Origin: Trichaptum fuscoviolaceum
Taxonomy: Eukaryota > Basidiomycota > Agaricomycetes > Hymenochaetales > Trichaptaceae
Length of the DNA: 64,000 bases
Direction: 5' to 3'
NCBI GenBank assembly: GCA_910574455.1
Contig: CAJSYZ010000004.1
Span: 3,163,528-3,227,527 of the forward strand
In this document: positions 14,348 to 59,005 of the stretch, piece after piece
Layout: each line of letters begins with the position of its first letter
Numbering within the stretch: position 1 is the stretch's first letter
Program-made: the position numbers and the translations under genes
Notes under the pieces: model-generated
The model's database searches: none
What the model was told of the DNA's origin: nothing
The model's input: the letters and a program-made list of their open reading frames with translations, nothing else

Positions 14348-14591
14348 CCCCAACACTCCCCATCAAGCAACTAGTTCATCCATCTTTCAACCAGACCTTG
14401 CTTTGTTCTGCTTGGTCTTCTCCTTCAACACTAATTCGAACCCTTCCCTGCCGGTTCAGTGTCTTGTCACTAGTTCCTTTTCACTATTTCTTTTTCTCAA
14501 TGAAAATCTGTAAACTACTTTGCCCGAAGGGCAACAATAAATCTTTTGGGGTTATACACAAAAGAACCACCCCCTCGCGGTGGGCTCCAGA

Positions 14592-17803: not shown

Positions 17804-18047
17804 CCCCAACACTCCCCATCAAGCAACTAGTTCATCCATCTTTCAACCAGACCTTGCTTTGTTCTGCTTGGTCTTCTCCTTCAACACTAATTCGAACCCT
17901 TCCCTGCCGGTTCAGTGTCTTGTCACTAGTTCCTTTTCACTATTTCTTTTTCTCAATGAAAATCTGTAAACTACTTTGCCCGAAGGGCAACAATAAATCT
18001 TTTGGGGTTATACACAAAAGAACCACCCCCTCGCGGTGGGCTCCAGA

Positions 18048-36312: not shown

Positions 36313-36318
36313 AAATTT
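36309..36318 (-). promoter_or_regulatory. Gag-pol -1 frameshift site
   Basis: In sense the last gag codons are GGA AAT TTT TGA. The heptamer A-AAT-TTT (plus strand 36312..36318) is a canonical X-XXY-YYZ slippery site in the correct phase, immediately before the gag stop, and a -1 slip there enters the pol frame directly. Confidence 0.8.
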
Positions 36319-37691: not shown

Positions 37692-37857
37692 AGTACTAAT
37701 GGATAGAGGTTCGATGTGAGGGCGGGTGTAAGAGAGATATGGTTTTGGTGGGATAGGTGGAAGTATGGATGCTTGACGTGAGGGAGTAGGAGTTTCTGGA
37801 GCAATGGAGCTGCCTGATTGAGAGGATCGTCTGGAGGATCGTCTGAAGAGGGTTTGA

Positions 37858-38590
37858 TCAAGAGATCCGTGAGTGGGTGAGTTTGAAACGAGATCGATGG
37901 GAGTTGCTGGGTTGAGGGTCGGAAGTGGAAGTTGGTTGGGGTTCTTGTGGTGGTTGTGGTAGTAGGTCGGGGTGTCGGCGGTAGTACTCTTCTCTAAGCT
38001 CTTTCCAATTTGGAGTGTGACCTTCGTATATTTCTCGTAGCTCTGGGCCGAGTGTATGAGCTACTACCCAAGAATCAGCAGTTGGGTTGTAGATCCAAGG
38101 GGTTTCGGTAGGTTCTCCGTTGGCGTCGGGAAGATGGAAGTATTGTGTTTCTTCGTTGAAGATAAGAGTGGTTGGGAACGGTGGTAGTGGGGGTTGAATG
38201 TGTTTGAACTCTCCTGCTAGACTTCGACGAGCAAGGTCTTCCCAGTTGGGGGTATGAGTGATGAAGTTTTGTCGAGCTTCTTCAGCAGAGTTGGCTTCGA
38301 TTGGGGTCCACCGTTGTAGTAGTTGATTGTATGACCACGATCGATAAGTTTTGTTACCAATTCTATAGTAGAAGAAGTTCTTTTCGGTGTCAAAGAAGAG
38401 TCGATTGTGTGGTGGTGGAGCGTCTGGATACTGAGGAACGGTAGTCTGTGTAGGTATTGGTTCTTCAGTGGTTTTCGAAGTAGTTTCTTTGTTAGTTTTG
38501 CCTGTTGTAGTAGATGAGGCTGTGTTTCGAGCCGTCTGTTTGCCTTTGTTCGCCGTGGTGATTAATCGGTTCCGGATTGATATCCGTAAC
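37858..38590 (-). CDS. Chromovirus leader ORF C
   Basis: Open in the minus strand from about 38590 to TGA 37858, between the leader ORF B and gag. No ATG at its left limit. Contains two similar units, one with FFDTEKNFFYYRIGNKTY and THTPNWEDLARR, the other with FNEETQYFHLPDA and GHTPNWKELREEYY, so an internal duplication. It overlaps ORF B in a different frame, which suggests one ancestral reading frame broken by small indels, or frameshifting. Function unknown. Confidence 0.5.
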
Positions 38591-40541: not shown

Positions 40542-41345
40542 ATCAGAGAAGGTATGTACATGAAGTGCCACACATCGACTGAAAGTTTAACCTCTCTTTC
40601 TGAATCAGTGGTGCGCTGACCGTGGTAACCACTCTCGTCGCGACAATTTCCTCTATTGTGTCCCTGGCTTGGGCAGATCATCGTTGATCCATGCCCTTGC
40701 TGGCGCGCTCATGCTCGACATTCTCGCCATCTCACGTTCCGCTTTTTGGATGAACGATGTGACATTGTCGTCGCTTATGGGCCGTGTGCCTGCCCCGTGT
40801 ATTGTCCTTCTCGAGGACCTTGACGCTGCATTCACTCGCTCAACTTCGCGCGACGGGTCCTCAACCTGTGTTCCTGGTGGTAAGAAGAAGAGCTCTTTGT
40901 TGTCCGACAACAAGGATAAGATGACGATGATGACGACAATGAAGAAATTGGCAAGAAGAAGAAAAGCAAGAAATATGACACTCTATCCGACGTGAACACG
41001 CTCTCTCTTTCTGGCCTTCTTAATGCACTTGATGGTGTCGCCGCTGCTGTTGGCCGCTTCCTCGTCCCGTCGCAGCGACGAACCATCTTGAGCGTTTCGA
41101 CCCCGCGCTCTCGCACCCCGGTGGTATGGATGTTTGGATCGAGTTCAAAAGCGCAAGCCCTAGGCAGGCTCAAGCGCTCTTCTGCGATTCTTCCTGTACG
41201 CGGACGTCAAGAAGCCCGAGATCACCAAACGCGAAGGCGAGCTCGATGGGATCAGCCTCCCCACCCCACCCCATCCTCTGGATCGATTTCGGAAATTCCG
41301 GTGTCGGTATTTGCGTCCGATGCCTCGAGTACCGCAACCTTGAGC
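40542..41345 (+). pseudogene. BCS1-like AAA ATPase, 3' remnant
   Basis: After the target duplication AGAAG, a 57-bp intron (40552..40608) leads to WCADRGNHSRRDNFLY, then the Walker A region CVPGLGRSSLIHALAGAL, MGRVPAPCIVLLEDLDAAF (Walker B intact), and NTLSLSGLLNALDGV. BCS1-type ATPases remodel or translocate proteins at the mitochondrial inner membrane. Here Walker A has Lys replaced by Arg and the usual GTGK spacing altered. At least one frameshift separates LLNALDGVAAA from NHLERFDPALSHPG (between about 41055 and 41085), and another lies around 41200. With the retrotransposon insertion this is a dead gene. Confidence 0.8.
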
Positions 41346-41704
41346 TCGAGCTCATGATGAGAGGTGCGTCAAACAGTCTACCTGACGTTGGCAAAGCAGC
41401 TCACGACGCAAATTGCGAATTCATCAAACGGGAAAAAGTATTACTTCATCTTAGATATCGTTCAAGTAGTCATGTCCTATTCCTCGACAAACACCTCTGT
41501 GCCACCACCATTGCCGCCGAAACGGAGATCGCTCGGTTTCAATATGCAGAATAAGTCGATTATCGGCCGACAGCGCAATCCCCCCAGCTCTAAGGACAAG
41601 AAACGCTCCTTCATTTAAACTACTTCTTCCATAGCGGATTGGGATGCATTGATCCCATTTCCCACATTGGCATGGTTCCGGTTTCGAGTTGTATCCCAGC
41701 AATA
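41346..41704. other. Short open stretch, tail of an unknown gene
   Basis: Plus-strand frame ending at 41618 with VPPPLPPKRRSLGF and KDKKRSFI, compositionally like a real basic C-terminus. It may be the 3' end of the AAA gene or of a different gene interrupted by the adjoining KDZ transposon. No more can be said. Confidence 0.3.
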
Positions 41705-41740
41705 TCAGCTGGAAAAATTAATTTTTTGTGTCTATAGACA
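41705..41740 (+). repeat. Left terminal inverted repeat of KDZ transposon
   Basis: Pairs with 57579..57614 in inverted orientation, 28 of 36 positions identical, including the outer TGGAAAAATT block and the inner TATAGACA. Confidence 0.75.
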
Positions 41741-42278
41741 GAGACAGAATATTCAAAAGAGCTGTTTATAGACAAGGTGATTTAACTGAATTCAAAATAG
41801 ACATGAACTGTGAAGGCTATAAGCAAGGTCAAGAATTTTTTTGTGATTGTCATTATACAAGTATTCATGTGATTCACTTTAAGCATCAGTTGAAAAAGAG
41901 ATTAGAGTGTGATTCAAAATAAGCAACAGAGATGTTGATTGTTCTCAATTTAAGATAAACAGTACAATGATGATTGACTTTGATTTAAATTAAGCAGAGC
42001 AAGCTTGATTATTGTTGATTATCAATAGACAGAAAGACAATTGATATCTGTTGATTCAGAACTAACATGGCTCAATTTCTTGTGACTTGACTTAGACAGA
42101 ATGACACGGAGACGATAGTCTTTAATCACACACAAGCATAGGCTTTGATCACATGATTATTAGTAATGATAGTATGGCCTACGGAGCCTATTACATGAAT
42201 GTCGTAAAAGAAGCTCGAGAGTGTTGTAAACTAGGTGAAAGAGATATTATAGTACATTCTAATATAGAGAAGAAGATA
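41741..42278. promoter_or_regulatory. Left subterminal motif array of KDZ transposon
   Basis: AT-rich, non-coding. Repeats of (T/A)ATAGACA (41767..41774, 41796..41803, near 42030) interspersed with TATAAGCA, AATAAGCA, TTAAGCA and GTTGATT words. The mirror-image region at the right end has the same words, so these are candidate transposase-binding sites. Confidence 0.55.
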
Positions 42279-44133
42279 CTACGTCTTCTTGGCTCTGCGA
42301 GCCCGAGTCTTCACTGGCGACGCATCTTTTTTAGTCTTGTCTGCCACGCGCGTCGACTTCCTCACTTCCTTCGTGATCGTATCACGACCGCGCTTCTTGG
42401 GTGGCCCAGGTTCGACATCAGTTAGAGACTTGCGCTTTCGTCTGAAGAATAGAAGTTAGAATAAGTTAGTCATGGAGAGGAAGTCCGCTTACCCTCGACC
42501 GGAGTTCTTGCCTGCACCCGTAATCTCAGGTGCAGTCGTATCAGTAGTCTGGGCCACCAACGGAGACTCAGCTATGATAGCTTCCTGCGAAGGAGGCACA
42601 TGCGATGTTTCCAACTGCTGGCTAGTAGGCGATACTCGTTTCGAGGGATCAGCGGCCGCTTGTGAATCCTTCTGTGCCCGCTCAACACCAGAGCTTCCTT
42701 GCGCAGGAGGAAGAGGCGATGCCTTTGAATGTCCATGGATAGGAGATGCATTGTCCGACGGATCAGCGATCGGTTGTAAGTCGGAGGGTGGAGGTACTGG
42801 GGCTCTTGTGATTGTGTCCGCAACCTGAGGGTGCGCAACGCTAGAAAGAGGAGCTGGCGTTTGTGTAGGACATTCCTGTTATAGCGAGTATTAGAAAATG
42901 ATAGACACATATAACAAAGAACACTCACCTTTGAACCGTCAATACTTTCATCCACCTTATCAGATGCACGGTCTTCACCAGAGGAAGTCTTTCGACCACC
43001 CTCCACAAGAAGGCCATGAGCATTTGCCGCTGCTACTTCCTCTTCCCAATTAATTAAACAGCTCCCCCCTACATGTCGTTAGATGGTGATAAAAGTATTA
43101 TTGACCACCAACGCACCTTGCAATGTCTCATCAGCATATGAGGCAAAAAACGAACCTGCCAGCATATGCGCACGACCCCCTTTGTATTTGTCGAAAGTGA
43201 TTCCACCATGGTGCTCCGCGCCCGCGGCAACACTATAGGTACATAGTCAGTTTATCACAATAAAAACCTTCAGAAATTACTTACGACGTTGCCCTCAGTA
43301 TCCCATCCGTATTCTTGTAAGCCATATAGACTTGGAAGACACAATCACCGCACTGATGCAGTTCGTGTCCATTCAATTTGTTTAGGGCTTTGCTGATGAC
43401 GGCGGTCATGCTTTCTTGATTCCTAATAAAGCGTCAGAAAAGTCATTGACTTGCAAAGATCGTAACTCACTTGAACGTGCGTTCGAGATCTGTTACGGAC
43501 TTGTTCTTCAACGCCTCTGCTTTCTCCGCCCACGACTCTTGTTCATCCTCGGGAAGGGCGTAGAACATATCCTTCTTAATGGACTGCACTAAGCCGACGT
43601 AGATTTTTGCCGTCTTTTTCTCCTCCTCTGTCTTTGTCGCCAACTGCTCCGCTTCCCTCACTTTCGCAGCCGCTAAGACCTCCTTCTTACCACACGTATT
43701 ATACCATAAGTCAGCAGCATTCGTCGATCGAGCAGAACGGAAGCGGATCGTGGAATCGCGTTTGTTAGAGAAAGTGGAAAGGTAGTTTCTCAACTTGGTA
43801 AGAAAACGCTATAGTGATATATTAGTTAGTTTTTTTGCAATAAATACTATAAGGAAGACTTACCTGCTTCGCCTCCCCTGCATTCTTTAAGTCCGGCCAC
43901 GTCCTGAGTAGCTCATTTGTTTTGCTCTTTCGCCATCCTTCCTTATCCTCATCGTCTACACCGCCGTACTCCACCGCGGCTTTATCGATCCACTCCTGCT
44001 GCTCTATTGTCCAATCCCAATCGAACCCTCTATTCTTCTTCTTCGTCTCCTCACCGACGCCAGGCGCGGAAGCTTGAGGTATCGATTCCGAGTCTGCGCC
44101 GGAAGACGAAGCGTTAGTCGTGTGTTTAGTCAT
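42279..44133 (-). CDS. KDZ cargo gene 1, nuclear-type basic protein
   Basis: Start 44133, stop 42279; exon 1 43864..44133, exon 2 43471..43808, then several small exons (near 43420-43280, 43230-43080, 42990-42480) with 50-60 bp introns in phase. The N-terminus (MTKHTTNASSSGADSES) is Ser-rich. Then FDWDWTIEQQEWIDKAAVEY and SKRDSTIRFRSARS-like segments (as FSNKRDSTIRF), MFYALPEDEQESWAEKAEAL (a helix resembling the HMG-domain W-x2-KA pattern), GHELHQCGDCVFQVYMAYKN, a Ser/Pro/Thr-rich low-complexity part, and a very basic C-terminus (PPKKRGRDTIT, KTRARRAKKT) that should be nuclear and DNA-binding. Not assigned to a named family. It is the terminal gene of the element, transcribed towards the left inverted repeat. 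Confidence 0.75.
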
Positions 44134-44981
44134 AGTAGAGAGATAGGGATGGATACTGACATTCGAGGGGGGGAGGGGGGGGGGGTTATGTACTATACAA
44201 GTAGGCCACGGCCACAGAGTGTCACAAAGCCCTCTAGCGCGACGTCCAAGTCCACAAGAGCATTCGGCCTTCGACAATAAGCAGTAATTCAAATTAAAGT
44301 TATTGTGACTGTACTTACCTTCGTAATATATTATGGACATGGCAACGCCGGCCACAAATAGGAGATGAAGGCGCATATGCGTAGTTGAGCAACCAGCGCA
44401 GGTCCAAGGACTCAAAGAGCTCTGGCCAAAGATGCGTCGAGAGTTTATTGGAAGCGCTGACGTTGGCGCTAATTGCGTGAGAAGACAATGCCGATATGGA
44501 GATTCTGCAGTTTCAATGGCGGTCCGAGAAATGTCAAGCCGAGTTACCGGTCATCGCCCGCTCGAGACCACTAAATTTAGTTGTCTATGGACCCTTATCG
44601 TGTGCTCCTATGACATCATATGAAGATCTTTGGCTTTCGCAAACTGCAAAATTACAACTCACTGCGAAGGAATTTGAATTCCCCCAAAATAGCCAGTCTC
44701 ACGTTTGTGAATGTACTATTATTGACGCATTTACGAGAATTATCTATGACAGGGATTAATGTAAGAAAATAATGTCCCTCAATGGATTGTGCTCAGGATG
44801 TGTCCGAACACGCTGCACATCAGTCTTCTCAATGAACGCGTGAAGAAGAAGTTGATAGCTACCTAGAAGTAGCAATCGTCCATGGCGAAGGCCACCAGCA
44901 CTTCCTCACGTCGCTCACAACGTCGAACACCAGCCATCGGAGCCATCTCACCCCATCGCGTTCCATCGACCCCCTAAAAAA
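44134..44981. other. Intergenic inside KDZ transposon
   Basis: Divergent promoter space between cargo genes 1 and 2. Contains an unusually long G-rich run (about 44165..44186) in the 5' leader of cargo gene 1. No supported gene. Confidence 0.4.
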
Positions 44982-45645
44982 ATGTCAGTAATATCGTCAA
45001 TGTCCATCCTCCGCAGAGCCCGGTCCGAGGACGACGAGGAGTATTTCGGTCTCCCATACGTCCACGAGAGACTAACGGTCGCGCGTCGACAAGCGACTCG
45101 CCTTAAGTTGAACTCTTCGGCTTGGGCTACGACCTTGACGGCGGAGTTTCCTGGCAAGCGATGCCCCAAGGACATTCATGGTTTAATAGTGTGAGTTGAT
45201 TACGTTCCGCGACAAAAAAACGGAGTCGCACATTTCGTGTTGTACTCCAGACACTCGCGCAGAACCACATCCACTTCTTATCTCCATGAATGGCAAGCTC
45301 ACCTATTACTTCCAGTGTCATGTTGCGCGTTAACGCGAAGCTGGAGAGGTTGCTTGATGAACCCGATTCTCGAGCGCGTGGAGACGTTGAAGCGTTTGAA
45401 CGGGTATTGGATCGGTGCCAGGCGGATTACAGATTCGCTGTCGAGACATACAAGGTGAGTAAGCTTCGTACGTGCACATAGTTATTGTACTAACTTGCCT
45501 TTAGTTGATTTCGAATGCACGGAGAACGGCGCATCGTCGTGGAATTCCAGCCCGAGATCGCGTGCGCGACGTTTTACACAAATTGTGTCTTGTGGTAGTC
45601 GCGATCGCGATCGCGATCGTCGTGTATAATGTTCTTGTGTTCTAA
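44982..45645 (+). CDS. KDZ cargo gene 2, small C-terminally anchored membrane protein
   Basis: Three-exon model: 44982..45190, 45298..45454, 45505..45645, in phase, 168 residues. Exon 1 encodes a charged N-terminus (RRARSEDDEEYFGLPYVHER); exon 2 a helix (LERLLDEPDSRARGDVEAFE); exon 3 RRTAHRRGIPARDRVRDVL followed by a C-terminal membrane span (LCLVVVAIAIAIVVYNVLVF) that ends the protein, typical of a tail-anchored protein. The span is encoded partly by GCGATC repeats (45601..45619). The exon 2/3 junction is solid; the exon 1/2 join uses a plain AAG acceptor and is tentative, exon 2 also has its own ATG at 45290. Function unknown. Confidence 0.55.
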
Positions 45646-46244
45646 GATCGCTAGCTAGCCGCAGCAGATGAAATTTCTGTCACGCAATGCTTCATTGTCA
45701 AGTCGGCATTCCTTTAGTATTACAAACAGGGTGTACTATGTTCTTGCGTACTAAGATCGATACGCTATCGTGAAATATTACATTCGTACTGGACGAAGTC
45801 CATGTGCTTTAGGATCTGTGGTCGATGTCACTAAATCATTTGCAATAGTCATGTATCATGTTCTTGCGCTAAGATCGGTCTTAAATGAATCTCACTTCCA
45901 GTCTCTATGTAAATCACGTTTGCCACTAGTGAAGCCTGTCTTACATCTCTCCCATCGTGAAATGTCTGTGTTAGAGTACGTCCTCGATCGTCGAAAACAA
46001 ACGCATCCTTTTTAAACGCAGTGATTAACCTGCATATTCTGTAGTCAGTGCCGTGCTAATGACGTTCACATACTGACGCCAAAGGCTTACCACTGACATA
46101 CAAGCGATCTGATGACATTCTACGACAATTATAGTCACTTTCAAGTCTACGTCTCAATTACGGAATCCACGCATGAATCCACGACACCAAGGCTTTCATT
46201 ACAGCGAACTAACACATATCTAGTTACATTCGTTTATCTCTATA
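45646..46244. other. Intergenic inside KDZ transposon
   Basis: 3' flanks of cargo gene 2 and of the transposase. Contains two similar short stretches, ATGTTCTTG(C/T)G..CTAAGATCG, near 45629, 45738 and 45857, a degenerate local repeat. No supported gene. Confidence 0.4.
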
Positions 46245-49200
46245 TTACTTCTTCTCCTCAGCAGCTTCAGACTCGGAGTCGGTGGCTAATGCACTCCTAA
46301 AGACATTTTCAGCACGATCACGAAAGGATTCGTGCATGGCTGCAGTGCGCAACGCATACGCATTTCGCCCTTTGTCTAGCCTGCTCACTGCATCTTTCAT
46401 TACACGACTGCCCCATAAGACTGCAAACTTCTTATGAGTCCGCATGACTCTCCTTAATTCCTCCTTCAAAATCTCAACCTCTTCGGTGTGACGATCACGA
46501 GACGCTCTTTGTCTATGCCAACGAACGCACTCCACTGTCGAAAGGCTCAGATACACGTGCATCCGTATGAGATATTCGTACTTACTATCAATGCTCCAAT
46601 CTTCTTGACTACAGTTTTCTGGCACTCCCGCGGACCAATACCAAGGCTCTGGACGAGTGTAATTCGTTCTTGATCTATTCGGGTCGTACATCCATTTGTC
46701 GTTCGCCCCTATATGTTGGAAGCGTAATGAGTCGCTTGGTAGCCCAGCCTGGATCATACAATCTCGCACGAAATTATATCGATCTACGGTTAGTTGGAGG
46801 TTGTCGTCGAAGGTTTTCAGCTTCGCGTTTGCTCTAGTGTGAGCCTGAGTCCCACGATTGTGTGTTGCTTTAGCTGCCCTGAACGACATCTTGTATTTGA
46901 TTTGTTCCTTGATTAAAAAGATTGCGTCAGATGCCACGCCCTGCCAGATTTCCAACTCGAGCGCTACAAGCTCCTTTAGTTCGAGCTGATCGTGTAAGGA
47001 ACTGTCGCATTCCGATGGAAGAGCTAATAAAGCTGTCTCAGGGACCAGTCTATCGTCATCCGGACTCGACATGAACGACGCATCGACTAGCGGCATGAAC
47101 TCCGCTTGCTTCTCTCTCCATTCCAAGATATCTGAATACAATCCCGACCTCGCAGCCGTTGCTTTGTCAGATGACAGAATCTCATTGTCCAAAGGTTGAC
47201 CGGCTTCTTTCCCAGCTTCTTTAGCCCATTTTTCGAACTTCTTCGTCAACTCCCATCTACCATAGATTAGCACTCGTTCTCGACATAAATAATGTAACTT
47301 ACTGCTTGAGGCGAACGGAAATACCAGTGTTGACGAAAGCCGCTTTCCCTTTGAAAGATCCCTCGGAGCCCTCCTGAGCATCCCCCGTCTTGATAGAGAG
47401 TGGACTAGGTTGCTGTTCTAATTGAGACAGTCTAAACAGTATATCATCACGAGAAGGAACTTGTCATATATGAGTGACTTTAATAAAGTACAAAGCTCAC
47501 GCGCTCTTACCTTTATCGCCTTTCTGCCTGAAGATACTGTGCCATTCCTCACCAACCTTCCAGGGAGCTTTGCCTATGTCCTTCGACCATTCCGCAATCA
47601 AGTCCGCGTCCGTGGCTTCAGTCTTAGCCTTGAATTCAACATTGAGCTTCTCTGTCTCTTCCAATTCCACTATCAGCCGACGACCCAGGTAATCGGCTAG
47701 TTGGGAAATTAAACATGTACCTAGTAGAGTAAGAAATGTGACGTACGCAAACGTTGAATTTTAGTCCAACACCAAAACGAGTTAAAGTCGTCGAGGGCAT
47801 CGAGACGATGTCCGTGGTTCATTTCCTGAGTACTACTTCCTGTCTGATTACTTTCCGCCCAAAGCTGCTCGACCGTTTCGCCATGTGTGACACCAACGCC
47901 ATCTTCGTAGTCAAGAGCGTAGAAAAACTGGCAATCTAACTTGTGAGCCAGGATATGCATCTTAGGTACCAACTCCTTTATTGAATCCAGGATTTTCTCG
48001 TAATTGGGCAGCCACTTTTGAAACCGATTGCGAACATTTTTGTCATGACGACAGGAGACATCGTACGAGAATATGATTCTCAGTTTCTTGACCGTTTCGC
48101 TTGCTTTAGCAAGAGCATAATCGACGAGATGATATCTATGGCATCGTCAGATACGAAGGAAAATGGTGAGAAATGGTCACGAACCGTTCACCGACGAACA
48201 TATTGACCATTCCTGATGGCCGGAAGATCCCGTGTCGAATACAAATAACTGCAATTACGCCGGTAACTGCCAATCCTTTGTCCTTAATTGCTCGTCGCGC
48301 GTCTCCCGCGCGGAATCCACTGCATGTCGCAGGCTGAGTACTAAGTGAGTCACACTATTGCAGGTTGAGCAGAATATACTCACAGGCTTTTTGTTCTTAT
48401 AAGTAGGGTCAGTTTCGACAGTTCGCACGAATTTGTTATAAGACGAGTCCTCTACGAAGATTCGCCGTCCGTTCGCCAAAGCCACATCATCAGGATCCGT
48501 TTTCTTCTCCTTGTTCTTCCGTCGTGCGTGAAAGTTTCCGTCTGCTCCGAGAAAGAGAGTATCAACGTAGCTGTGAATGGAGACCGTTGAGCTTCAGACA
48601 GCCGTGCCTACTAGATCACTCACTCTGGCACGTCCGGGTCCCGTAGATCCTCTGGTACACCAAAATCATCCTCACAATCGCCACGCATATTGAATCCCTC
48701 CTGTGGACACGCGGGACAAGTCAAAGCGATACTTGATTCCGGTAGATGGGGCAAATCGGCCTGCAAACCATAGGTGTCGCCAGATCTCTTCAGAGATTTC
48801 AAATGACTCCATACTCGTGCTATTCTGTTGTACTCCCGATAACGATCCTAAACCTATCAGTCTCATACTCTTAATGTGATGAAATTCAACTCACTGGGAC
48901 ATCATCAGTGAAGACATTGTTCGTAAGACGCTGGAGTGACCATATGTAATCATACGAGCTCTTCTTCGACTGCAAGATATGCACGTGTGCCTGATTTAGC
49001 ATTTGAAACGTAAACACCGTCTGCGGGTTGGTTAGAGTCGCAGGAAATAGGCGAGCGCGCATGAGCTGATCCACACGATCGCCACAACCAAGACAGTCAC
49101 ACCACGCAACCTTTGATTTGTGGATACCATTATGGTGAACGACTGTAATCGAGGTAGACTGCCGTCCGGAAACCATGTTTTTACAGCGCTCGCCTCCATG

Positions 49201-49857
49201 ACCTAAAAAGATCACGAGTCCTACAGATCCCAGATCTTCCTTGACAAAGAAGCCTTGATGATATTTCTGCACCCAATGGAAAGGTTCGTGTACATGAGCT
49301 TCGCAGATACACAGACGACAACAAGGGGTGAAATTTATGCATTCCTGACAACGCATGTTTGCTGTCGTGCCACGCCCGCAGGAGCAGGGCGAATCGATGT
49401 CATTGTCTGATTCCAGCTCGAACATCAAGTTCAAAAGCCTGGTTTCCTGCTCACGAAACTCTCGCAGCTCCACAGAAGCTCCCTTGGCGGTGATAAGAGT
49501 TCATATGAGTTCACTCTGTCCGAAGAGAGATAGAGACAGAGACAGACAGGGACATACTTGTTTTCTGTACCCCTTCCTTGCCTTTCCTTTTCCTTGCGGC
49601 ACATTCAGCCCCTCATCCTCGTTATCTGCGTCGACATTTGCCAAAGGACCAACGCCTGATGTAGAAGCGAACCCGTCTAGTATGTGCGACGCAGCTGGAC
49701 CACTGGAAGTGTCCCTAGACGGCAGGTTCTTCATTTTCCTCTCTGGTACTAATCGCCCTTTCTTCTTGTTGGCTGTTACGACCTTGACCGTTGTTCTTCG
49801 CTTCATAGACGCATGGGCGGACATATTGGCGGGGGTTTTCGATGCACTGCTGCACAT
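46245..49857 (-). CDS. KDZ-superfamily transposase with CxC2 domain
   Basis: About a dozen exons on the minus strand; exon 1 49558..49857, exon 2 48895..49482. The N-terminus is basic (KVVTANKKKGRLVPERK). A CxC2-type cysteine cluster follows: CSCGRGTTANMRCQEC, CCRLCICEAHVHEPFHWVQ, FLGHGGERC, then QLMRARLFPATLTNPQTVFT. The next exons encode the KDZ core: SHLKSLKRSGDTYGLQ, IALTCPACPQEGFN, TLFLGADGNFHARRKNK, TCSGFRAGDARRAIKDKG, VTGVIAVICIRHGIFRPSGM, IIFSYDVSCRHDKNVRNRF, VPKMHILAHKLDCQF and GVGVTHGETVEQLWAESNQ, ending with a long charged helical tail (to 46245). This matches the KDZ transposases. Every junction I followed kept frame and I found no internal stop, so the enzyme may be active. Confidence 0.88.
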
Positions 49858-50169
49858 GATGAGGGATCGAAGAGACAGAAGGAATGCAGCGTTCCACCAA
49901 AGATACTAGAACAATAACAGGCAACTAACCACAGAAGACCACAAAATCTACAATACTGCCCATTCTGGTAAATATTGCAATGATTAGCAAATCCTGAGAT
50001 CCGATGGCTTATGTAACCACTTACCATCAACGCTTGAGCCACCCAAGTGATATCTCTCGGAAGTCCAAGAGTTGTCGATAGCGTAGACTAAATCAATGCG
50101 TAACTCAGATAATCTTGCATATAAGCGCATCGTCAAGTGCAGCATGTACCTCTCATCACTCCACACAAA

Positions 50170-51421
50170 ATGCCCCCCAAGCAACAACCAAAGCCTACGT
50201 ACACCATCAACCCCGAAACTGGTGAACCGAAACCAACATACGTTCCAGGCGGAAATGCGTTTTTGCTGGCCTTGCGCGAACACGAAGATGGACCAGTCGA
50301 GAGCCGCACGTGTAGCATATGCAAGACAGACCTGGAGCTTCGGGTTTCAATGGGTCGAAAAATCCATGAAAACTACGGACGAAGGGAATTATGGGTCAGT
50401 AATGTCATTGTCTGAATTGCAAGTCATATAGTTGACGAACAGTATAAAGTGTAAAAATTGCAGAATGCGAACATTCTTGGAACCCCCACTGGATAGGGGA
50501 CGACGCGTGAATCTCATGGAGAAAGTTAAAGGGTTCTCGCTTGTGGTGGTTCCCACTCGTCCCGAAGAGCGAACAGAAGGCAATGTCAAACGCTCAGTAT
50601 CACAGCGATTCACCGTAGGCGCACGCATTGCTAACGAAGGAGGATCTGTAGACATGCGAGGTGCTAAGATGAAGAGTCCCAGCCCTTCGTTGTCCTGGCC
50701 GTCATCCTCTCAAACACGCGTCCCTTCATCGGAAGATGGCCTCGAGGTTCGTCAACGTATCCACCCAGAGGACACGTCGGAATTCATTGACCTGACGTTA
50801 TCGAATGACGAGGTGAATGGCAAAAGCGATAGCGAAGCGGAAGACTATGCTAGAGGATTAAGGTCTACGAGTAGGGCTTTCGGAGATGCGATATTCTTTA
50901 AAGAGGTGAGAGTCACAAACAAATATGAAGCAAAAGTCACTCATCTCCGTTATAACAGCCTTTCAAGAAACCATTAAAACACGAGTTGTTCGTCACTAAC
51001 GACAGACTCCTGTTTCAAATCACGGAAGACAAAGTATTTGAGCATATGACTGAAGACATGAAAGTGGAGCTCTACAACCCGATTCACTCCACCTTCGTCA
51101 GGGCGTTTCCGTCAGACCAAGTCTTCGTATCACAAGGGATTCCTTTGATTTATCGCAAGTGCGGGCTGCAAGATTGGGAGTGCTTGGGGCTGGAAGAGCG
51201 ATTGAACGACCTTCATAAACGCATCTACATGAGGTGGCCAGATAGTCAACGTCCTAAAGAAATCGACAACCGTCCGCAGGACGTAAAAGGCAAGAAGCGT
51301 GCATACAATGGTGAGTAATATGAATTAATGATATAAGCTGCGACGCTAACCATCTGCAGAACATAAGGATCATAGCATTCGCAGTCACTATAACGCTAAA
51401 CGCACAAAGAAGGAATTTTAG
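50170..51421 (+). CDS. KDZ cargo gene 3, CxxC zinc protein with SIM-like motif
   Basis: Four exons in perfect phase: 50170..50394, 50432..50905, 50959..51310, 51360..51421, 370 residues. The first intron is very short (37 bp). Two CxxC pairs, CSICKTDL near residue 55 and KCKNCRM near residue 82, form a likely zinc ribbon interrupted by the first intron. The middle is Ser-rich and disordered with EFIDLTLSNDE, a good SUMO-interacting motif; the C-terminal part (KHELFVTNDRLLFQITEDKV to RCGLQDWECLGLEERL-like sequence) looks globular, and the end is basic (KGKKRAYNG, NAKRTKKEF). Expressed away from the transposase, starting about 310 bp from its 5' end, so they share a divergent promoter. Family not recognised. 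Confidence 0.75.
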
Positions 51422-51570
51422 GACGGATACGAGAATGAAGCGCGTACACGTACCTTAGGCCCAAGCGCAGAAACAAGGGACAATTGGTCCTCATTTCATG
51501 CACACAGGACTTTGTAGGACAAGAAATACATTGGTAGCGGTCTATGTTACATACATAACAATAATCTACT

Positions 51571-53907
51571 CTATTCTGCTAAATAACAAGGAATAATGGG
51601 TAGACGATCATGTACATCAATACAAGTCTTAACAAAAAATTCTGCAAGTCGTTCGAATATAAGATCTTTTTTTCGGTCATTACAGTCCAATACGTTTGTT
51701 TCTAAGATAATTTTGGGGCAGTTAGGCCAGTCCCTGACGATGCGAGTGAAGCTATCCAGTGCCTTATCGTCAGGCAAGTCGGACCACATATGCCTCATGC
51801 CGGATGGGGACAACTTATATTGCCCATCTGCAGTGATGCCGTTGTAGACGGACGCAAGCAATAGATGCCGCCTGCCCGCCGCTGTAGGGGACAGGCCGGA
51901 TCGCGGTACGAGTTCGAAATCAATAGTCCATAAATCAAGGATAAATCCAGTCTCAAAAACGTCCCACAGCACTCCCTCTCGAATGCTTCTCGTGGATTTC
52001 ACATTCTGCAAGCTGACATCTTCACCGGTGAGCCACCACTTCACTGTAGACTGTGCATCATAAGGAGGGAAAGCGCCTTGCACCGCCAAAGTGACACGAA
52101 CTTCTGCCCGTTTGCCACGCTTCTTTCTATCATGAAGACGAGAGCTACCTGGTTCGGGTGTCGTGGGATGGCGACGATCGGGCAATGTGGAGTCCAGCCT
52201 TTGAATGACGGAAGCCGCGGTCTGCGGATCGATGTCTTTGCTCTGCGTGTAATCACCGTGTAGAATGTCGCGCCATTGCTTGATAGTGTATGACTGTTCA
52301 CCAAACAAGCTCCCTTCCTTAATTCGGTGACGCAAGAAACGCTCGATGCGAATGTAGTTGTGGTAGTACCGAGCCACTCTATCCGGATTTGGATGAGAGA
52401 ATAAAAACGGCGGGGGATGAAGATACTTCGCGGTAGTCGAGGGCTTGCATTTCGTGATCAAGCCTACGTCCGTGATGGCCTTGAGCCAGTGCCGGGCAAT
52501 GGGCGGACAGTCTCGCTGACCAGGGTACATGCCGCTCGGAATAGAGAACAAAAGAGAGCCGGAAGGTGCATGCGACTGTGATGAGTCAGCACAAGGCCGT
52601 TTGGACGGCCTGGCGTTGAAGCCGCTGTCTGGCCCTGTTCGTTTCACCGACGAAGACTGCATAGGCTCTTCCGGGCTTGGTTGAGTGCGCTGAACGACGT
52701 GTGACGTCATAGTCGAAGATGGGCTTGGACCTGACGGAGGTTCAGCACGTATCGGTTCAGACTCATCTGTACGGGAGTACAGGCGCATAGCACGCAGTAG
52801 GGTCTGTCATTGCGGGATCAGGTACGATTCGACCGCAGGGAGATCGTAAATCGCCCAGATTGACAGGAATTTCGCCTATGTGAACCACTTTCCCTAACAG
52901 GCGTGGGCGATCCGTGACTAGGCACGAGGAAAGGAGGATGGGTTCCACGACGTTGAAAATCTTGGTGGACGGACTCATGGTAGACGCATGCCGAATGTAC
53001 CAGACTGGAATTCCGACGCGAAATAAGTCCTGGTGAATGGTTCCACTGGAGCAGAACACGCCACGATAAGGAAGTACTTCAGTCGCACGATAGGTGGGAT
53101 CGCGAAGACGAGGTCGAACATCGGTGACAAGGTTGATGAACCCTACGAGTTCCAGAATCAAACGCTGCAATTCCCGAAAGGTTGAACGAGTGCCATAAAG
53201 AGGCTCGGATACTGATTGCAATCGTTCGATGACCTTTTCTCCTAAAGTTGTAATGGTCGTCACTACCTTATAATCGGAAGCGTCCTTGAACTCAGTCGTA
53301 GTATAACGCTGAATAGCCCGAAGTTTGAAGAGAAGGAAGTACTTCAGTAGCGTATCACGAGTCGATTGTCGTACTTGGCCAGAAACTAATGTATCACCAT
53401 TTATGAGCCGAAATTGTCCATTCTGCTCCCATGTTGATTCATCTAGGTTATCCCATAGGAGAGAGTCTAATGAAGTTGAATACGGGTCCACCTCTTTGAG
53501 CAGCCTTTGCAGCGCTGGAAGTTTTGGAATGCAGACATGGTGGAGGTTGGCAGACGAATAAGCCTGGGGCCATCGTGTGTAATCGTGTGGTCCCCACGTC
53601 CCGTCACCTCGAATATATATCCCATCGGATTCAATAACAGGGAACTCCGGGACGTATGTCATATTAGGAGAGGTCACCAGCCTGTCGTCGATGCGCGTGT
53701 CCCATAGAGCTAAAGCATCAAAGGATCCGACGTGAACCGATCCATCTAAGATAGATATATGAATACACGTTTGAATAACATGTTGGGAGAGTGTTTACCC
53801 TGCTGATGAGTTGGCCTAAAACGAGGAACACACGCCTGGAGATCCATTAACTCATTGCACGGAAGATGTTCGTTATCTCGCATCTCAGCTACGCTGGCAA
53901 GGTTCAT
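51571..53907 (-). CDS. KDZ cargo gene 4, large uncharacterised protein
   Basis: Exon 1 53799..53907 (MNLASVAEMRDNEHLPCNEL) joins in phase to the long exon from 53745 (DGSVHVGSFDALALWDTR). The first part is a globular domain (SPNMTYVPEFPVIESDGIYI, IYIRGDGTWGPHDYTRWPQ, LLKYFLLFKLRAIQRY, FCSSGTIHQDLFRVGIPVWY). A second frame, 51571..52788, overlaps the first by 26 nt and continues with a Ser/Pro-rich linker, then another domain (HDRKKRGKRAEVRVTLAVQG, GILDLWTIDFEL-like sequence, GMRHMWSDLPDDKALDSF). The two are joined either by a weak 67-bp intron with donor GTCGAA or by a 1-nt frameshift near 52770-52790; I cannot tell which. No known family. Confidence 0.65.
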
Positions 53908-55508
53908 GAGAACGAAAAGTCATAAGACTGCAACAGAAGACAGCTCACATGCTCCTTGTTGGTATAATTAAGCACAGAAGTTGATGAGCGACAGCTATAT
54001 GGGTCTGCGAAGTCGAGCGAGCACGCCTTGCAAGTGCTGGTGAACCAAGTTGAATAGAAGTCTTAAACATAGCACGATAAGCACACCAGACGAGTGTTCA
54101 AACAAGCTGCTCACTGCTGGAAGACTACTGCTTAACGATTCTCCTACAACGGATTGAACTCGAAGGTAACCGAAGGAAGGACGGGCGCACAGCCCAAAAG
54201 CTTGCACGCAACAGTAGGCTTCACCTCGACACAAAATCGACGTGATCGCCTAGCCTAAATCGCCGGCTCAAAACCGACAATATTAGGGCTTATAGAACGT
54301 CCGATAGCAAGTCTTGAAGGAGGGAGTTGAGGGAATCGTTGGTAGAGGGAGGGACAAGGGCGACGTGAGAGATGTTATAGACGAGCCTCCATGAGGCGTA
54401 CTTCTCATCACTGGCATCATGATCATTTAGGAAACTAATTAGCAGAGTTGAACTTGAATATTATCTCAGGCTGGTTTCCTAATCGAGATGCATGACGCAA
54501 AACGCCCGCTGGCATCTTTGCATACGCCAACACCTCTTTCTTCCTCCCACCATCATCTCATTCCTATACCTCAGTATTTTTTCGCTCGATGGTTTTGCAC
54601 CATCTCCTTCCCAGCATCATGTCGGTTTTGAGCCGTCGTGAACTGGATGCTCGTCTTCTACTGTCAGTTGTGCGCTGACAAGTCCGATGGCCATCGATGG
54701 CCCAAGCGTACACTCGTCACCCTGCGTTCGTCACCGATGCTGTTCATGGCCAGCGGTAGCATCTGGATGGAACCGCAGCCACTGCACCCTTATTGTGGAA
54801 ACATCGTTGTGGTCAGACTGTCATGACTACTTAAAGGTGAGCACATTTGTTTGCCTCCTTCGAACGTCTTTAACCTTACAGTTACTGCTCACCAGCCGTA
54901 CGTCAGATACCCACACGTCTTGCTATAATGGATGCAGTCATGTTCTACAAATGTACAATGGGTCTCGGATTCTAGTAAGTCATTGCTGCTTTAAAGTCTT
55001 TCATCTACTAACAGCCAGTCCGGGCATCACATCAGCGTATCCATTTGCTCGTCGCAGATCGTATTCTGGTAGTGATGTACATGGACAGCGAGCCTTGTGG
55101 TGGTCGCATATTGCTTTGGCCGGAAGAGCCAATTCTCAAGCGCGTATGTTTTGGCGGAACAAAGGTGCTTCCGGTGAAGAGGACGGGGTTGTGCATTGAT
55201 TGTGCAGTTATTGCTTTACTGATTTTCTCAATTGAAAACTTATGTGTGGCTATGCAGAGTCAGTCTACGTAAATAATGTACAATATTTTGACAAATAAAT
55301 GTTTATTATCACCAATACTAGTTCGCGACGCTCTTGGGTGCTGTGGTCGTTAAGCACTCTTTGAATTCAGCTTGGGCCGTTCGAGCTAAGCGTTCGAGCA
55401 ATACGGTCTCTTGTTCCCCGTGGCCACCCGTTGACCGTGGCTCTTAGGCTGCTCGGTGCGCCTATAAAGGTTTCGTGTCGACGCTAGTCCTGGCCATCTT
55501 CCCTCATT
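53908..55508. other. Unassigned stretch inside KDZ transposon, possible small gene
   Basis: About 1.6 kb. Plus-strand candidate exons occur between 54590 and 55270 (for example MSVLSRRELDARLLLSVVR at about 54620 and PCGGRILLWPEEPILKRVC near 55090) but I could not join them in phase, and none shows a domain. The left part (53910-54560) is the promoter flank of cargo gene 4; a minor short-word run (GAGTTGAACTTGAATATTATCTCAGGCTGG) is at 54436. Confidence 0.3.
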
Positions 55509-56785
55509 ATGTTCTCTGCAGACTCTTCCGACGAAAGCGAATATAAACCTTCTGATAATGAAGTTGTCAAGACTCGCAAGTCCCGCCATCGCCATCGTAG
55601 CTTTCGTTGGACTAAACTTCATCGGAAAGAATTGAATCTCTTTCGCGAGGAATACAATCATATTCCATTCAAGTATTCCAACTCATGGATAGAGAACTGT
55701 CTCGATTGACTTTACCGGATATCTGAGCCTAGATTCAAATCACGAGTTAAGACCGTGAGTAATAATTGATTCATTGATGTCCTGCATACTCACGAGAACG
55801 CAGAAATTCATGGAATGGCTTAAGAACATGACAAAAGAAACGGAGGTCATTCCAGAGACTTTGAACAAAGATCAATCGACCCGCCTAGATACGTAAGTTT
55901 TTAACTTATCCGTTTTACACTAGACTCCATTGCTAACGTGCTTTCAGTAACCAAGACAAACTTATGCACATATTCAATGCCAACACTTTGGATCATACTG
56001 GTTTTGAGCCGCATCAATCAGGAAATACTATGCTATTTAATGCCTTAATGATGAGGACATCTTCCAATACTTTTCGCACTGTATCGTAAGTTATGGGGAC
56101 TGCCTGCAATTGACAAAAGAACTTACATAGATCTACAGCTACCTTTCTGGGCATGGAGTTCGCCCTGAGATAAACGACGCGATTCAACCGCACGTTCGGA
56201 AGGAATTTTTTAGGCAACTTTATGGGGCCTGCCGACCCTGTCTAATGGGAGGTAAGTAGTTCAATAGACTGTTGAGACTAATGCTAACGTGTTGCGGTGA
56301 TTAGGTCCGCCATATCTCGATTCGGTAAGCACGACAATGTCGCCGGCTTTGTCGCCAGCGCCATCGTCATCACGAAATACGGAGCAAACATGTGTCGATA
56401 CCGCTGCAGAGGTAGCAGACGCGCCTGTACTCGAGAAATTGGGCTCGACGGATGATGATGTTCAGCAGGTGTGCTCGGAGTTGACAGGTGTTCACGGTCG
56501 ATATCGTAGGCTCCATTTATTTTTTGGTAAAGAATGCTAAATTCACATTTCTATTATGAAGACGACGCTCAACCGAGTTTAGACAATATTGTTGGGGACA
56601 GACCTCATGGGCTACCCCGCAGCACAGGTGAAATGAATCATCTTTCGTTGCCAGCGGTTTCCGATGAAGGTGAGCCTGTGGTACGTGCACTACCACAAGG
56701 CTCAGTAGACTCTGGCATTGTCCGTCGAAGTAAAGTTGTCTTTGACCCTTCAAATAGACCACGGAAGAGGAGTCGAAGATCTTGA
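55509..56785 (+). CDS. KDZ cargo gene 5, basic nuclear-type protein
   Basis: Starts MFSADSSDESEYKPSDNEVV, followed by a very basic stretch (KTRKSRHRHRSFRWTKLHRK). A TGA after WIENCLD interrupts the first exon; the frame beyond it stays open (LYRISEPRFKSRVKT) to a GTGAGT donor, so this is either a nonsense mutation or a missed junction. Further exons with good splice sites follow: KFMEWLKNMTKETEVIPETL (about 55805), NQDKLMHIFNANTLDHTGFE (about 55950), YLSGHGVRPEINDAIQ to LYGACRPCLMGG (about 56140), a Ser/Pro-rich exon (about 56306) and a last exon ending NRPRKRSRRS at 56785, a strong nuclear localisation signal. Family not recognised. Last gene before the right end of the transposon. Confidence 0.55.
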
Positions 56786-57578
56786 TTTGAAATAGACAAT
56801 GTACTGTATTTTGGATGATAGCAATTAGACATGCCGGTTATCCATAATTACTGAGCAACTTCCGGCCATAGTGGATGGACACCGAAGAAGTATCGCGACT
56901 CGTGACAAGCGGGAGCACGCGTACGTCACGCGTCAAACTGCGTCGCGTCTCTTCATCATCGATCACAACAACAAGGACAACCCCGAGCCTCAAGACAGCG
57001 GCGACGCACAATGAAGACTGCGATTATTTCGCAACCCACCCACCCTCTCCTCTGTTGGCATTTATAAAGGCCTCAAAGAGGTCTTTTCGTGGCTGACAGT
57101 CCCCTGGAAATGGCGGCCTTCACTCATTGGTCCCCCGGCAACCCAAGTCGCTCCAGAGCAAGGTCCTTTTCAGCGAGCTCCAGGGTCGCTTCTCCCACAA
57201 GAACCTGCCAGCCCAATTTCTCACTATTGCATCCTTCGCGAAAGCCTATATTTTTTTGATTATCGACAGACGGGAGTGTGCAAGAGCGCATGGACGAATC
57301 CTCTGATTCAAGTTTGATTTCAATTAGACACGCTGCTTATTTATAATTACTAGACAACTCCAGTCATGTCTTCTGATTAAAGTTGATTAACGTTAGACAT
57401 CAAGCATTTATTTAATGAGAATTATTCACTCAAATTCCCGGCCTGTCTATATGGAATCATTTTGTCTTACTGTCTAATACTAATCACTTCACCTGCTCAT
57501 CTATGCTACTGACACGGTTGCTTATTTGGAATCATTACTAAATTACGGTGTTGTCTATTTTGAATCAGCATGTCTCCA
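56786..57578. promoter_or_regulatory. Right subterminal region of KDZ transposon
   Basis: The inner part (56790-57270) has no supported gene. From 57270 on, the sequence is AT-rich and repeats TTAGACA (57324, 57393), TGTCTA (57444, 57471, 57552), TGCTTAT (57334, 57529) and GATTAA/GAATCA words, mirroring the left subterminal array. Confidence 0.55.
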
Positions 57579-57614
57579 TGTCTATAAGCAGGCAAATTGA
57601 ATTTTTCCAACTGA
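57579..57614 (-). repeat. Right terminal inverted repeat of KDZ transposon
   Basis: Inverted partner of 41705..41740. Plus strand runs TGTCTATAAGCAGG..AATTTTTCCAACTG A; the outer ten bases of TGGAAAAATT match perfectly. Confidence 0.75.
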
Positions 57615-58183
57615 AAATTCAGTGTATCCAGGGATGACTGATTGTATGACGGCTTACTCGTGGCTTTGCCTTCTAGAGCTGATGGAACAGCTTCTTGTGC
57701 AGTGGGCTATGTCTTCCTGACTTCTTCGGAGTTAACCTGACTCACTTTCTTGTTTGTTTGTGCATAAAATGAAAAGAAGCCTCATAATCGAGTCATCTAG
57801 AAGAAATCCTTCTTATCTCCTGTCAGTTCAGCTTGAGGTTTATCCGAGCCATAGTATAATGCACTGATAGATTCCTCTCTTCTTTTCCCAGAAGAATAAG
57901 GCATCAGAAAAATGCGTGCAAGAGCTTTGTATAAATGTGAACTCGGAGTGGGTGTCGCCCCTCCCCCCACCCCCCCACCCATTCAACCCTTCGCCATGAA
58001 CTTTTATCACATTCTGTTGGGGCTCCACATGCTCCTATTGATTGACCATGCTGTGCTTCGAGTACGCATCGCGCGAAGACTTCCTTGGACACAAAGGAGG
58101 ATATCTAGGATGCAAAAAATCGTGCTTACTTTCCATTTCCTCTCAAAATCACTGCACTGACTTTTTGCCAGCTTCACAAACAG
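57615..58183. other. Host flank between KDZ transposon and exonuclease gene
   Basis: Promoter side of the exonuclease gene. A C-rich run (57961-57978) is present. Short frames occur on both strands without support; a non-coding or additional 5' exon of the exonuclease gene may lie here. Confidence 0.35.
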
Positions 58184-59005
58184 ATGCAACATCTCCTCGA
58201 CTACCTGGGGGTTCCGCCAACGCCTCTTCTTCAACTTCGCAGTTATACACTCGGACCTCTTGTTCCTGAAGTATGTCTGACCACCGCGACGATGGAGAAT
58301 GCCGTAGACGTCATCTATGCTTCCTTGCCGGATGCCCCGGAACGACGCTTCGTTGCCCTCGACATTGAATGGGCGAGTAACTCACCAGAGCTATATCGCG
58401 TGGACCTCATCCAACTCGCGGTTCAGCAACATGTGTTCCTCCTCCGGACTCATCTACTTAATGCTCTTCCCCCAAGATTGGAACAATTATTAGGTGATGA
58501 AACTGTATGGAAAGTGTCAGCAGGAATCGCTGGTACGACAATCCCATTTCTTCTCTCATTATGCGGCATAACTGAACTAATTGGCAGGTGATGCGACTCG
58601 CATCAGGAATAAATTTGACATTCCCGTATCCTCCTGTGTCGATTTGACAGATTGGGCGCGCTTCGTTTACCCCGATTTCTGGCCAAGAACGCCAACTTGG
58701 CTCCAGCTGCTTCTGAACCCCCGTCTCTGGTTCAAGTTTCCGCAACCGTTTATAAAGCTGGAGGAGATGGCGGGCAGGCTCCTGCAGACAAACATCGAAA
58801 AAGATGTCTTGGTCACGATGAGCAATTGGGCCGAAGTTGAGCTGTTGGCTGCTCAAGTCCATTGTAAGTTATCCTTTTCAAGTTGTCACTCAGGCTGACC
58901 ATCTTCTCACTTGCATCTGCTCTATTAGATGCGGCAATCGACGCGCACAGCACGTTTGCTGTTGCTTCCGTCTTGAATCAAGATGCCTTGGCCTTACCGG
59001 TGTAA
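58184..59005 (+). CDS. DEDDy-type 3'-5' exonuclease (RNase D/WRN-like), C-terminus replaced by LTR
   Basis: Exons 58184..58532, 58588..58863 and 58929..59005, phase 1 at both junctions, 233 residues. Exo I FVALDIEWA supplies the D-x-E pair, Exo II VSAGIAGDATRIRNKF (with the Asp across the first intron), and Exo III YAAIDAHSTFAVA gives the DEDDy Tyr and Asp. Such enzymes trim RNA or DNA 3' ends with two metal ions. The third exon reads ..NQDALALP and then GTG-TAA, where TGTAA are the first bases of an LTR retrotransposon. Beyond the element, after the duplicated CCGG, the original frame continues DTIIHHFPMLDIE then TAG. So 13 residues have been swapped for one Val plus a stop, leaving the whole catalytic domain. 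Upstream start could lie in an earlier exon. Confidence 0.88.

What the first reader, a model, noticed from the sequence alone, without database searches (positions are those of the whole stretch)
41705..57614. A 15.9 kb KDZ transposon carrying at least five cargo genes and apparently intact
36-bp inverted termini, matching subterminal motif arrays, a CxC2-KDZ transposase without visible lesions, and five or more uncharacterised genes on both strands (a basic nuclear-type protein, a tail-anchored membrane protein, a CxxC/SIM protein, a large two-domain protein, an NLS-tailed protein). Large eukaryotic transposons with stable non-transposase gene sets are little described outside TET/JBP-linked KDZ elements. 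The cargo could be accessory transposition factors or selfish cargo.
Basis: partly seen in the sequence, partly recalled or inferred. Interest (0 to 1): 0.88.

Follow-up and report, generated by a model that had tools for sequence, protein, structure and literature searches.

The report
Gene-carrying KDZ transposon with mosaic copies
This is a real jumping DNA element, found at three places in the genome of what looks like a mushroom-type fungus; it carries its cutting enzyme, a partner protein shared with some relatives of that enzyme, and four unknown genes, and its three copies are patchworks, which suggests that such elements swap parts.

Summary
The element is real and has moved. The own genome holds two more full-length copies (C11, C7). 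Five of five held copies of the target repeat are empty at the exact site. The CxC2-KDZ transposase is open in this copy, but gene D carries a 1-nt insertion relative to both sister copies; in the assembly no copy has every gene open, and assembly error is not excluded. D is a family: 12 of 22 D loci lie upstream of a KDZ domain on the same strand, so D is a recurrent partner. Genes A, B, C and F were found only in the three copies; A and B show purifying selection (dN/dS about 0.3). The copies are sharply mosaic: B differs at dS 1.3 where the transposase differs at 0.015, and the C7 copy has ends from two different sites. It works like a KDZ cut-and-paste transposon with an accessory gene set that recombines between lineages. 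What the cargo does is not shown. New variant of a known kind.

The parts
41697..57622 (.). Whole element, 15,926 bp, 5'-CAGCAATATC...AAAATTCAG-3'
   Evidence: Alignment of three full-length copies and their flanks
41690..41696 (.). Left target-site duplication TGTATCC
   Evidence: present once in 5 of 5 empty sites
57623..57629 (.). Right target-site duplication TGTATCC
41697..41740 (+). Left terminal inverted repeat (36-nt core 41705-41740)
   Evidence: pair I1, 78% complementary; outer 8 bases
57579..57622 (-). Right terminal inverted repeat (36-nt core 57579-57614)
   Evidence: pair I1; outer 8 bases
41788..42169 (+). Left subterminal array of TGATTNNNNATARRCA-like motifs, 10 matches with up to 2 mismatches, 9 on the + strand; eight successive ones spaced 26-40 nt
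   Evidence: motif fitted to these ends
56783..57594 (-). Right subterminal array of the same motif, 11 matches: 6 of the 7 from 57334 on are on the - strand, the other four are on +
42279..44133 (-). Gene A, 7 exons, 515 aa, basic C-terminus (23 K/R and 7 D/E in the last 65); open in all three copies
   Evidence: no Pfam match over cut-off; none found in the protein database; matches only the three copies
44982..45645 (+). Gene B, 3 exons, 162 aa, C-terminal hydrophobic tail (tail-anchored type); the C11 form is identical at 82 of 162 aligned positions
46245..49857 (-). Transposase, 10 exons, 1031 aa, CxC2 + KDZ; putative catalytic D381, D508, E569
50170..51421 (+). Gene C, 4 exons, 370 aa, two CxxC pairs, SUMO-interaction-like IDLT motif and lysine-rich end (motif names recalled)
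   Evidence: one homologue, P0009, 61% over 53%
51571..53907 (-). Gene D, recurrent KDZ partner; 1-nt insertion near 52.80 kb relative to the C11 and C7 copies (open 760-aa reading in C7)
55509..56785 (+). Gene F, 7 exons, 316 aa, basic C-terminal end; open in all three copies

Best explanation
It is a recently mobile cut-and-paste transposon of the KDZ class with a CxC2-type transposase, about 15.8-15.9 kb, in three copies. Inferred mechanism: the transposase binds the inverted termini and the regularly spaced subterminal motifs at both ends through its cysteine cluster; its DDE core excises the element and inserts it with a 7-bp stagger. D, encoded upstream of a KDZ transposase on the same strand in five groups of elements of this genome, most likely acts as a second transposition or regulatory subunit. 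A, C and F look like nuclear proteins and B like a tail-anchored membrane protein; together they most likely serve the element (expression, anti-silencing or placement in the nucleus) rather than the host. Copies exchange segments by homologous recombination, so core and cargo have different ages. Shown: ends, TSD, empty sites, three copies, domains, linkage of D, purifying selection on A and B, mosaicism. Inferred: the role of every gene, and present activity; as no assembled copy has all genes open, copies may need to complement each other.
For: Three full-length copies; 7-bp TSDs in 2 of 3. Empty site: joined window flanks match 5 of 5 held copies of the target repeat at 98.8-99.6% over 1,200 bp with one TGTATCC; joined C11 flanks match across the junction at 24 paralogous places of 77-93% identity. 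CxC2 and KDZ domains; DDE residues aligned with another KDZ transposase. D: 12 of 22 loci (9 of 19 without the three own copies) have a KDZ domain 1.4-3.4 kb downstream on the same strand; chance per locus about 0.26%. dN/dS: A 0.27-0.30 in three pairs, B 0.28. No stop by substitution in the models of A, transposase, C, D, F in any of three copies, and all introns of A, transposase, C, F keep GT-AG in all copies. A, B, C, F match only the element. Mosaic: 803 variable columns, 70 runs against a shuffled mean of 470 and minimum of 432 in 500 shuffles.
Against: No copy has every gene open: D in the window; transposase and D in C11; transposase and C in C7. Only three copies were found, and no shorter derivative at the sensitivity. 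The C7 copy has no TSD. For C, D, F and the transposase few codon changes exist (6, 8, 11 and 18 in the window-C11 pair), so their ratios are weak; D window-C7 is 0.95 and F window-C7 0.59. Ten of 22 D loci have no KDZ domain near. Function of every cargo gene is inferred: no Pfam match over cut-off and no fold match for D.
Confidence: 0.75

Rival explanations
1. The element is a KDZ transposon that captured host genes by chance; A, B, C and F are passengers, conserved because they serve the host or because they were captured recently.
For: Ten of 22 D loci stand away from any KDZ domain, and the three looked at lie next to host-like genes, so D at least can live outside a KDZ element.
Against: No A, B, C or F match outside the three elements in the genome. 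B forms as far apart as dS 1.3 are both found inside the element at the same place, which speaks for long residence in it.
Confidence: 0.15
2. Segmental or assembly duplication of a locus rather than transposition made the three copies.
For: The C7 copy has no TSD and non-matching flanks.
Against: Exact boundaries in three different contexts, 7-bp TSDs in two copies, empty sites for two copies.
Confidence: 0.03
3. The mosaic pattern is not recombination but very different mutation or constraint along the element.
For: Divergence is highest around B and high in A, genes for which no relatives were found.
Against: Which two copies agree switches in blocks (window=C11, then window=C7, then C11=C7); synonymous divergence differs about 90-fold between B and the transposase; C7 left and right flanks belong to different repeats, with no match crossing the junction.
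Confidence: 0.05
4. The small lesions in D, C and the transposase are assembly errors, and one or more copies are fully intact.
For: Five of the six disrupting changes are single-base and each gains or loses a G on the + strand, three of them in runs of 2-3 G; the sixth is two bases; no stop codon arose by substitution in any copy; an open D (P0001, 12 member sequences) differs from the C11 reading at 2 of 696 residues. P0001 bears the source label lgn, which I take to mean a read assembly (recalled).
Against: P0001 differs from all three copies, so it may be another strain or copy. No reads are at hand.
Confidence: 0.4

Closest known systems
Kyakuja elements of Agaricomycetes (KDZ; Kojima 2025, PMC12730594: abstract, passages, discussion part 1 of 2 and figure legends seen)
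   Same: KDZ transposase, 7-bp TSD, left end beginning CA, extra gene beside the transposase
   Different: Described with 5'-CA..TG-3' termini and no TIRs, and the described ones carry TET/JBP; here the right end is CAG-3', there are imperfect TIRs, no TET/JBP match at the element, and five other genes
KDZ1, KDZ2, KDZ3 of Cryptococcus neoformans (PMC12810828, passages seen)
   Same: KDZ elements of about 9-11 kb, low copy number, new insertions observed
   Different: CxC1 instead of CxC2, TIRs of 139-241 bp, 4-8 bp TSDs; the passages seen name only a transposase
KDZ transposons with CxC2 in Pleurotus ostreatus (PMC7641404, passages seen)
   Same: Intact KDZ transposases all preceded by a CxC2 region
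   Different: No cargo set described in the passages seen
Starship giant transposons of Pezizomycotina (PMC12289983, PMC12134995, search listing only)
   Same: Fungal element with cargo genes
   Different: Tyrosine recombinase there, KDZ transposase here; up to about 700 kb there; here TIRs and TSD of a DDE-type element
IS3EU elements with TET/JBP and alpha-kinase genes (PMC12730594, same parts seen)
   Same: Eukaryotic DNA transposon with a repeated order of non-transposase genes
   Different: Other superfamily, 6-bp TSD, other genes

Membership tests
KDZ superfamily | KDZ transposase domain (PF18758) | tested here: met
   E 4.7e-30, 105 bits against a cut-off of 26.6, one exon
KDZ superfamily | KDZ-associated cysteine cluster N-terminal to it | tested here: met
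   CxC2 PF18803 1.1e-31
KDZ superfamily | Catalytic DDE residues | tested here: met
   D381, D508, E569 aligned with the C2 KDZ transposase; one comparison only
KDZ superfamily | Terminal structure with TSD of about 7-8 bp | tested here: met
   7-bp TSD in 2 of 3 copies; empty site
Kyakuja | 7-bp TSD | tested here: met
   TGTATCC, CCTCCGC
Kyakuja | 5'-CA..TG-3' termini | tested here: not met
   CAGC...TTCAG in all three copies
Kyakuja | No TIRs | tested here: not met
   36-nt inverted termini, 78%
Kyakuja | Place in the transposase tree | not tested
   No named Kyakuja, Dileera or Zisupton sequences were at hand
Zisupton / Dileera | 8-bp TSD | tested here: not met
   7 bp in both copies that have a TSD
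TET+ KDZ elements | Tet_JBP gene in the element | tested here: not met
   3 Tet_JBP matches in the genome, none at the three copies
Starship | Tyrosine-recombinase captain | tested here: inconclusive
   Pfam scans of element proteins gave only CxC and KDZ domains over or near cut-off; no direct search for a captain was made
D partner family | D homologue upstream of and parallel to a KDZ transposase | tested here: met
   12 of 22 D loci, this one included

The most novel reading that the evidence does not exclude
A lineage of KDZ transposons runs on a two-protein core (transposase + D) and carries an element-owned accessory set (basic nuclear A, tail-anchored B, CxxC/SIM-like C, basic-tailed F) whose lineages persist for long times and are reshuffled by recombination between copies, much as phage modules are. 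B would be a transposon-encoded membrane anchor, possibly at the nuclear envelope, with old diverged types kept in circulation.
Probability: 0.35. Interest if true: 0.8.

Novelty: new variant of a known kind. Interest (0 to 1): 0.62.

Why it matters
DNA transposons of eukaryotes are usually thought of as a transposase with little else. In the titles, abstract starts and passages that I saw the only accessory gene named for fungal KDZ elements is TET/JBP; most subscription papers are not held. A recurrent partner gene and recombining cargo would make KDZ elements a test case for how eukaryotic transposons gain and keep helper functions. Three copies with known empty sites make activity and the need for D directly testable.
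Full report
OBSERVATION. The claimed element is there. The 601 bases at its left end match three places in the own genome (59.09 Mb, 12 contigs): the window, C11 (99%) and C7 (85%); the right end matches the same three, C11 at 100% and C7 at 99%. Aligning the copies with their flanks puts the ends at 41697 and 57622 (15,926 bp; C11 15,789; C7 15,862). The window copy is flanked by TGTATCC, the C11 copy by CCTCCGC, 7 bp each; the C7 copy has no duplication.

EMPTY SITES. The window copy sits in a high-copy repeat (37 other places listed, 40 of 103 candidates scored). Left and right flanks joined with one TGTATCC match all 5 of 5 copies of that repeat that were held (L007-L011) at 98.8-99.6% over 1,200 bp without a break at the junction. 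Joined C11 flanks match across the junction at 24 paralogous places of 77-93% identity, for example C7:5777164 (query 1-437, 86%) and C9:1465365 (203-500, 93%). For C7 no listed match crosses the junction: the left flank has one 99% relative on C1, the right flank twelve relatives elsewhere, and each stops at the junction (40 of 238 candidates scored). The two ends of the C7 copy therefore come from different sites; exchange between two insertions is the simplest account, a rearrangement beside the element is possible.

TERMINI. The 36-nt inverted termini are 78% complementary and head the list of inverted pairs of the region. A motif TGATTNNNNATARRCA, which I fitted to the ends, has 35 matches in the window with up to 2 mismatches (17 expected, largest of 100 shuffles 29); 21 lie in the two subterminal zones, all 6 exact ones among them. 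On the left, eight successive matches are spaced 26, 40, 36, 35, 35, 36 and 31 nt. In the last 260 bases of the right zone 6 of 7 point the other way; four further in do not.

GENES. Gene models were made by hand with a simple splice-aware predictor. Transposase: 1031 aa, CxC2 and KDZ, D381/D508/E569 aligned with the KDZ transposase of the C2 element. A 515 aa, B 162 aa with a hydrophobic C-terminus (best 19-residue hydropathy 3.0 and 2.75 in the two forms), C 370 aa, D 760 aa as read in C7, F 316 aa. None of A, B, C, D, F reaches a Pfam cut-off: the best for whole proteins is 0.09 for B (where D was represented by four homologues); one exon of A alone gave DUF5098 at 0.004, 16.6 bits against a cut-off of 27.

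INTACTNESS. In the window the transposase, A, B, C and F are open, D is not. C11: A, B, C, F open; transposase (2-base deletion) and D (1-base insertion) not. C7: A, B, D, F open; transposase (two 1-base deletions) and C (1-base deletion at an intron border) not. Leaving the indels aside, no stop codon arose by substitution in A, transposase, C, D or F in any copy. The lesions are all small indels, so assembly error is not excluded. An open D with 2 differences from the C11 reading is in the protein database (P0001).

WHAT RECURS. A, B, C and F match only the three copies (14, 9, 11 and 18 exon matches, all there). D has 22 loci that I grouped by hand from 49 matches. KDZ domains: 115 matches, 61 loci, grouped by hand. 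Twelve of 22 D loci have a KDZ domain downstream on the same strand at 1.4-3.4 kb; the other ten have none within 10 kb. The binomial P of about 5e-19 for 9 of 19 treats loci as independent and is too small. By groups: the twelve fall into five (the three copies; three C5 loci, 90-99.7% alike; C1/C2, 98%; C3/C10, alike by eye; C7/C1, by like scores only), the ten into at most eight; 5 of 13 groups compares with about 0.03 expected. The C1, C2 and C5 elements have 0.73-0.84 kb between the D and the CxC2 matches, too little for a C gene of 1.25 kb. Whether they carry anything else was seen only on C2, up to 3 kb past the transposase, where no match to A or B lies. So transposase + D is shared, and A, B, C, F look like additions, as far as this genome shows.

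OUTSIDE THE GENOME. D: 8 proteins at E below 0.001, identity 100% to 25%, one named (Trametes versicolor). A: none at E 0.01. C: one, P0009, 61% over 53% of the query. The tool needs shared exact words, scored about 8,000 candidates for D and A, and can miss multi-exon genes in unannotated data, so absence is weak evidence.

SELECTION. dN/dS (Nei-Gojobori; order window-C11, window-C7, C11-C7): A 0.29, 0.27, 0.30 with dS 0.14-0.29; B (window-C11) 0.28 with dS 1.31, 82 of 162 aligned positions identical; transposase 0.22, 0.22, 0.09; C 0.28 in all three; F 0.17, 0.59, 0.15; D 0.53, 0.95, 0.32. Only A and B have enough changes to lean on. No confidence limits were computed, and the three pairs are not independent.

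MOSAIC. Of 803 variable gap-free columns, 802 have a two-against-one pattern, in 70 runs; 500 shuffles gave a mean of 470 and a minimum of 432. From left to right: window = C11 up to about 43.1 kb; window = C7 to about 43.9 kb; C11 = C7 from about 44.2 to 46.3 kb, covering B; near identity of all three over most of the transposase, C and D; window = C7 from about 53.9 to 56.3 kb. Each copy is the odd one somewhere. B at dS 1.3 beside a transposase at 0.015 does not fit one shared history. Switches lie inside gene A, in the 3' end of the transposase gene, just upstream of D and inside F, which fits homologous recombination or gene conversion and not transfer of whole cassettes.

HOW IT MOST LIKELY WORKS. 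See best explanation. Shown: ends, TSD, empty site, domains, linkage, selection on A and B, mosaicism. Inferred: DNA binding by CxC2 to the motif arrays, DDE cleavage, D as partner, the nuclear and membrane roles of the cargo. The spacing near 35 nt on the left suggests an ordered assembly of transposase or D on that end.

KNOWN. By TSD length it resembles Kyakuja (7 bp; Kojima 2025, PMC12730594: abstract, passages, part 1 of 2 of the discussion and the legends seen), but CA..TG ends and lack of TIRs are not met and the tree was not tested, so I file it as KDZ with CxC2, not as Kyakuja. Cryptococcus KDZ1-3 have CxC1 and 4-8 bp TSDs (PMC12810828, passages). In Pleurotus intact KDZ transposases are preceded by CxC2 (PMC7641404, passages). 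A search for KDZ with cargo genes found one paper, seen as a listing only. The listings (30 of 68 papers listed) show no title or abstract start on multi-gene KDZ cargo; the papers themselves were mostly not opened.

CHECK. It added the absence of stops by substitution and withdrew the C5 element end; the count of codon changes (6-18), the Pfam wording and the group statistics were mended.

Noticed in passing
window 41097-41696 and 57630-58229: Target of the insertion is a high-copy repeat; at five of its other places a Plavaka transposase match lies 7.92-7.96 kb away on the same strand, at some others about 9-20 kb (by eye, capped list), so the target may be part of a large Plavaka-type element. 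Not seen in the window itself.
   Followed up: partly
L012/L014, C11:213336-213585 and 229375-229631: The C11 copy lies in a repeated sequence that reads like the C-terminal part of an Hsp70 (by eye).
   Followed up: partly
L015-L017, C7 flanks: The C7 copy has no TSD and its two flanks belong to different repeats.
   Followed up: partly
L073, L074, L075: Three D loci without a KDZ domain lie beside genes that read like a bZIP factor, a GMC oxidase and an STE3-type receptor (by eye); possible solo or domesticated D genes.
   Followed up: partly
C3:5436268, C8:4246, C9:1760512: Three Tet_JBP matches with the same score, one 4 kb from a contig end.
   Followed up: no
C2:1775661-1776280 (L030): The D + transposase locus on C2/C1 has a tandem array with a period of 66 nt upstream of D (offsets).
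   Followed up: no
L021 and L026, beyond position 4327 of L021: Two C5 D loci stay alike upstream of D where the third (L020) departs: unclear whether a longer element, a truncation or a shared target.
   Followed up: no
window 32828-38060: Gypsy-type LTR retroelement genes with a chromodomain integrase.
   Followed up: no
window 12846-14362 and 16272-17818: Two pairs of - strand ORFs of like lengths (393/294 and 403/295 aa), 3.4 kb apart, which may be a tandem duplication.
   Followed up: no
window 53947-55500: Spacer between D and F without a gene model; C11 differs there by up to 6% in an otherwise 99% region.
   Followed up: partly
P0009: A 61% identical homologue of C with its IDLT motif kept: diverged relatives of at least this gene exist elsewhere.
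   Followed up: partly
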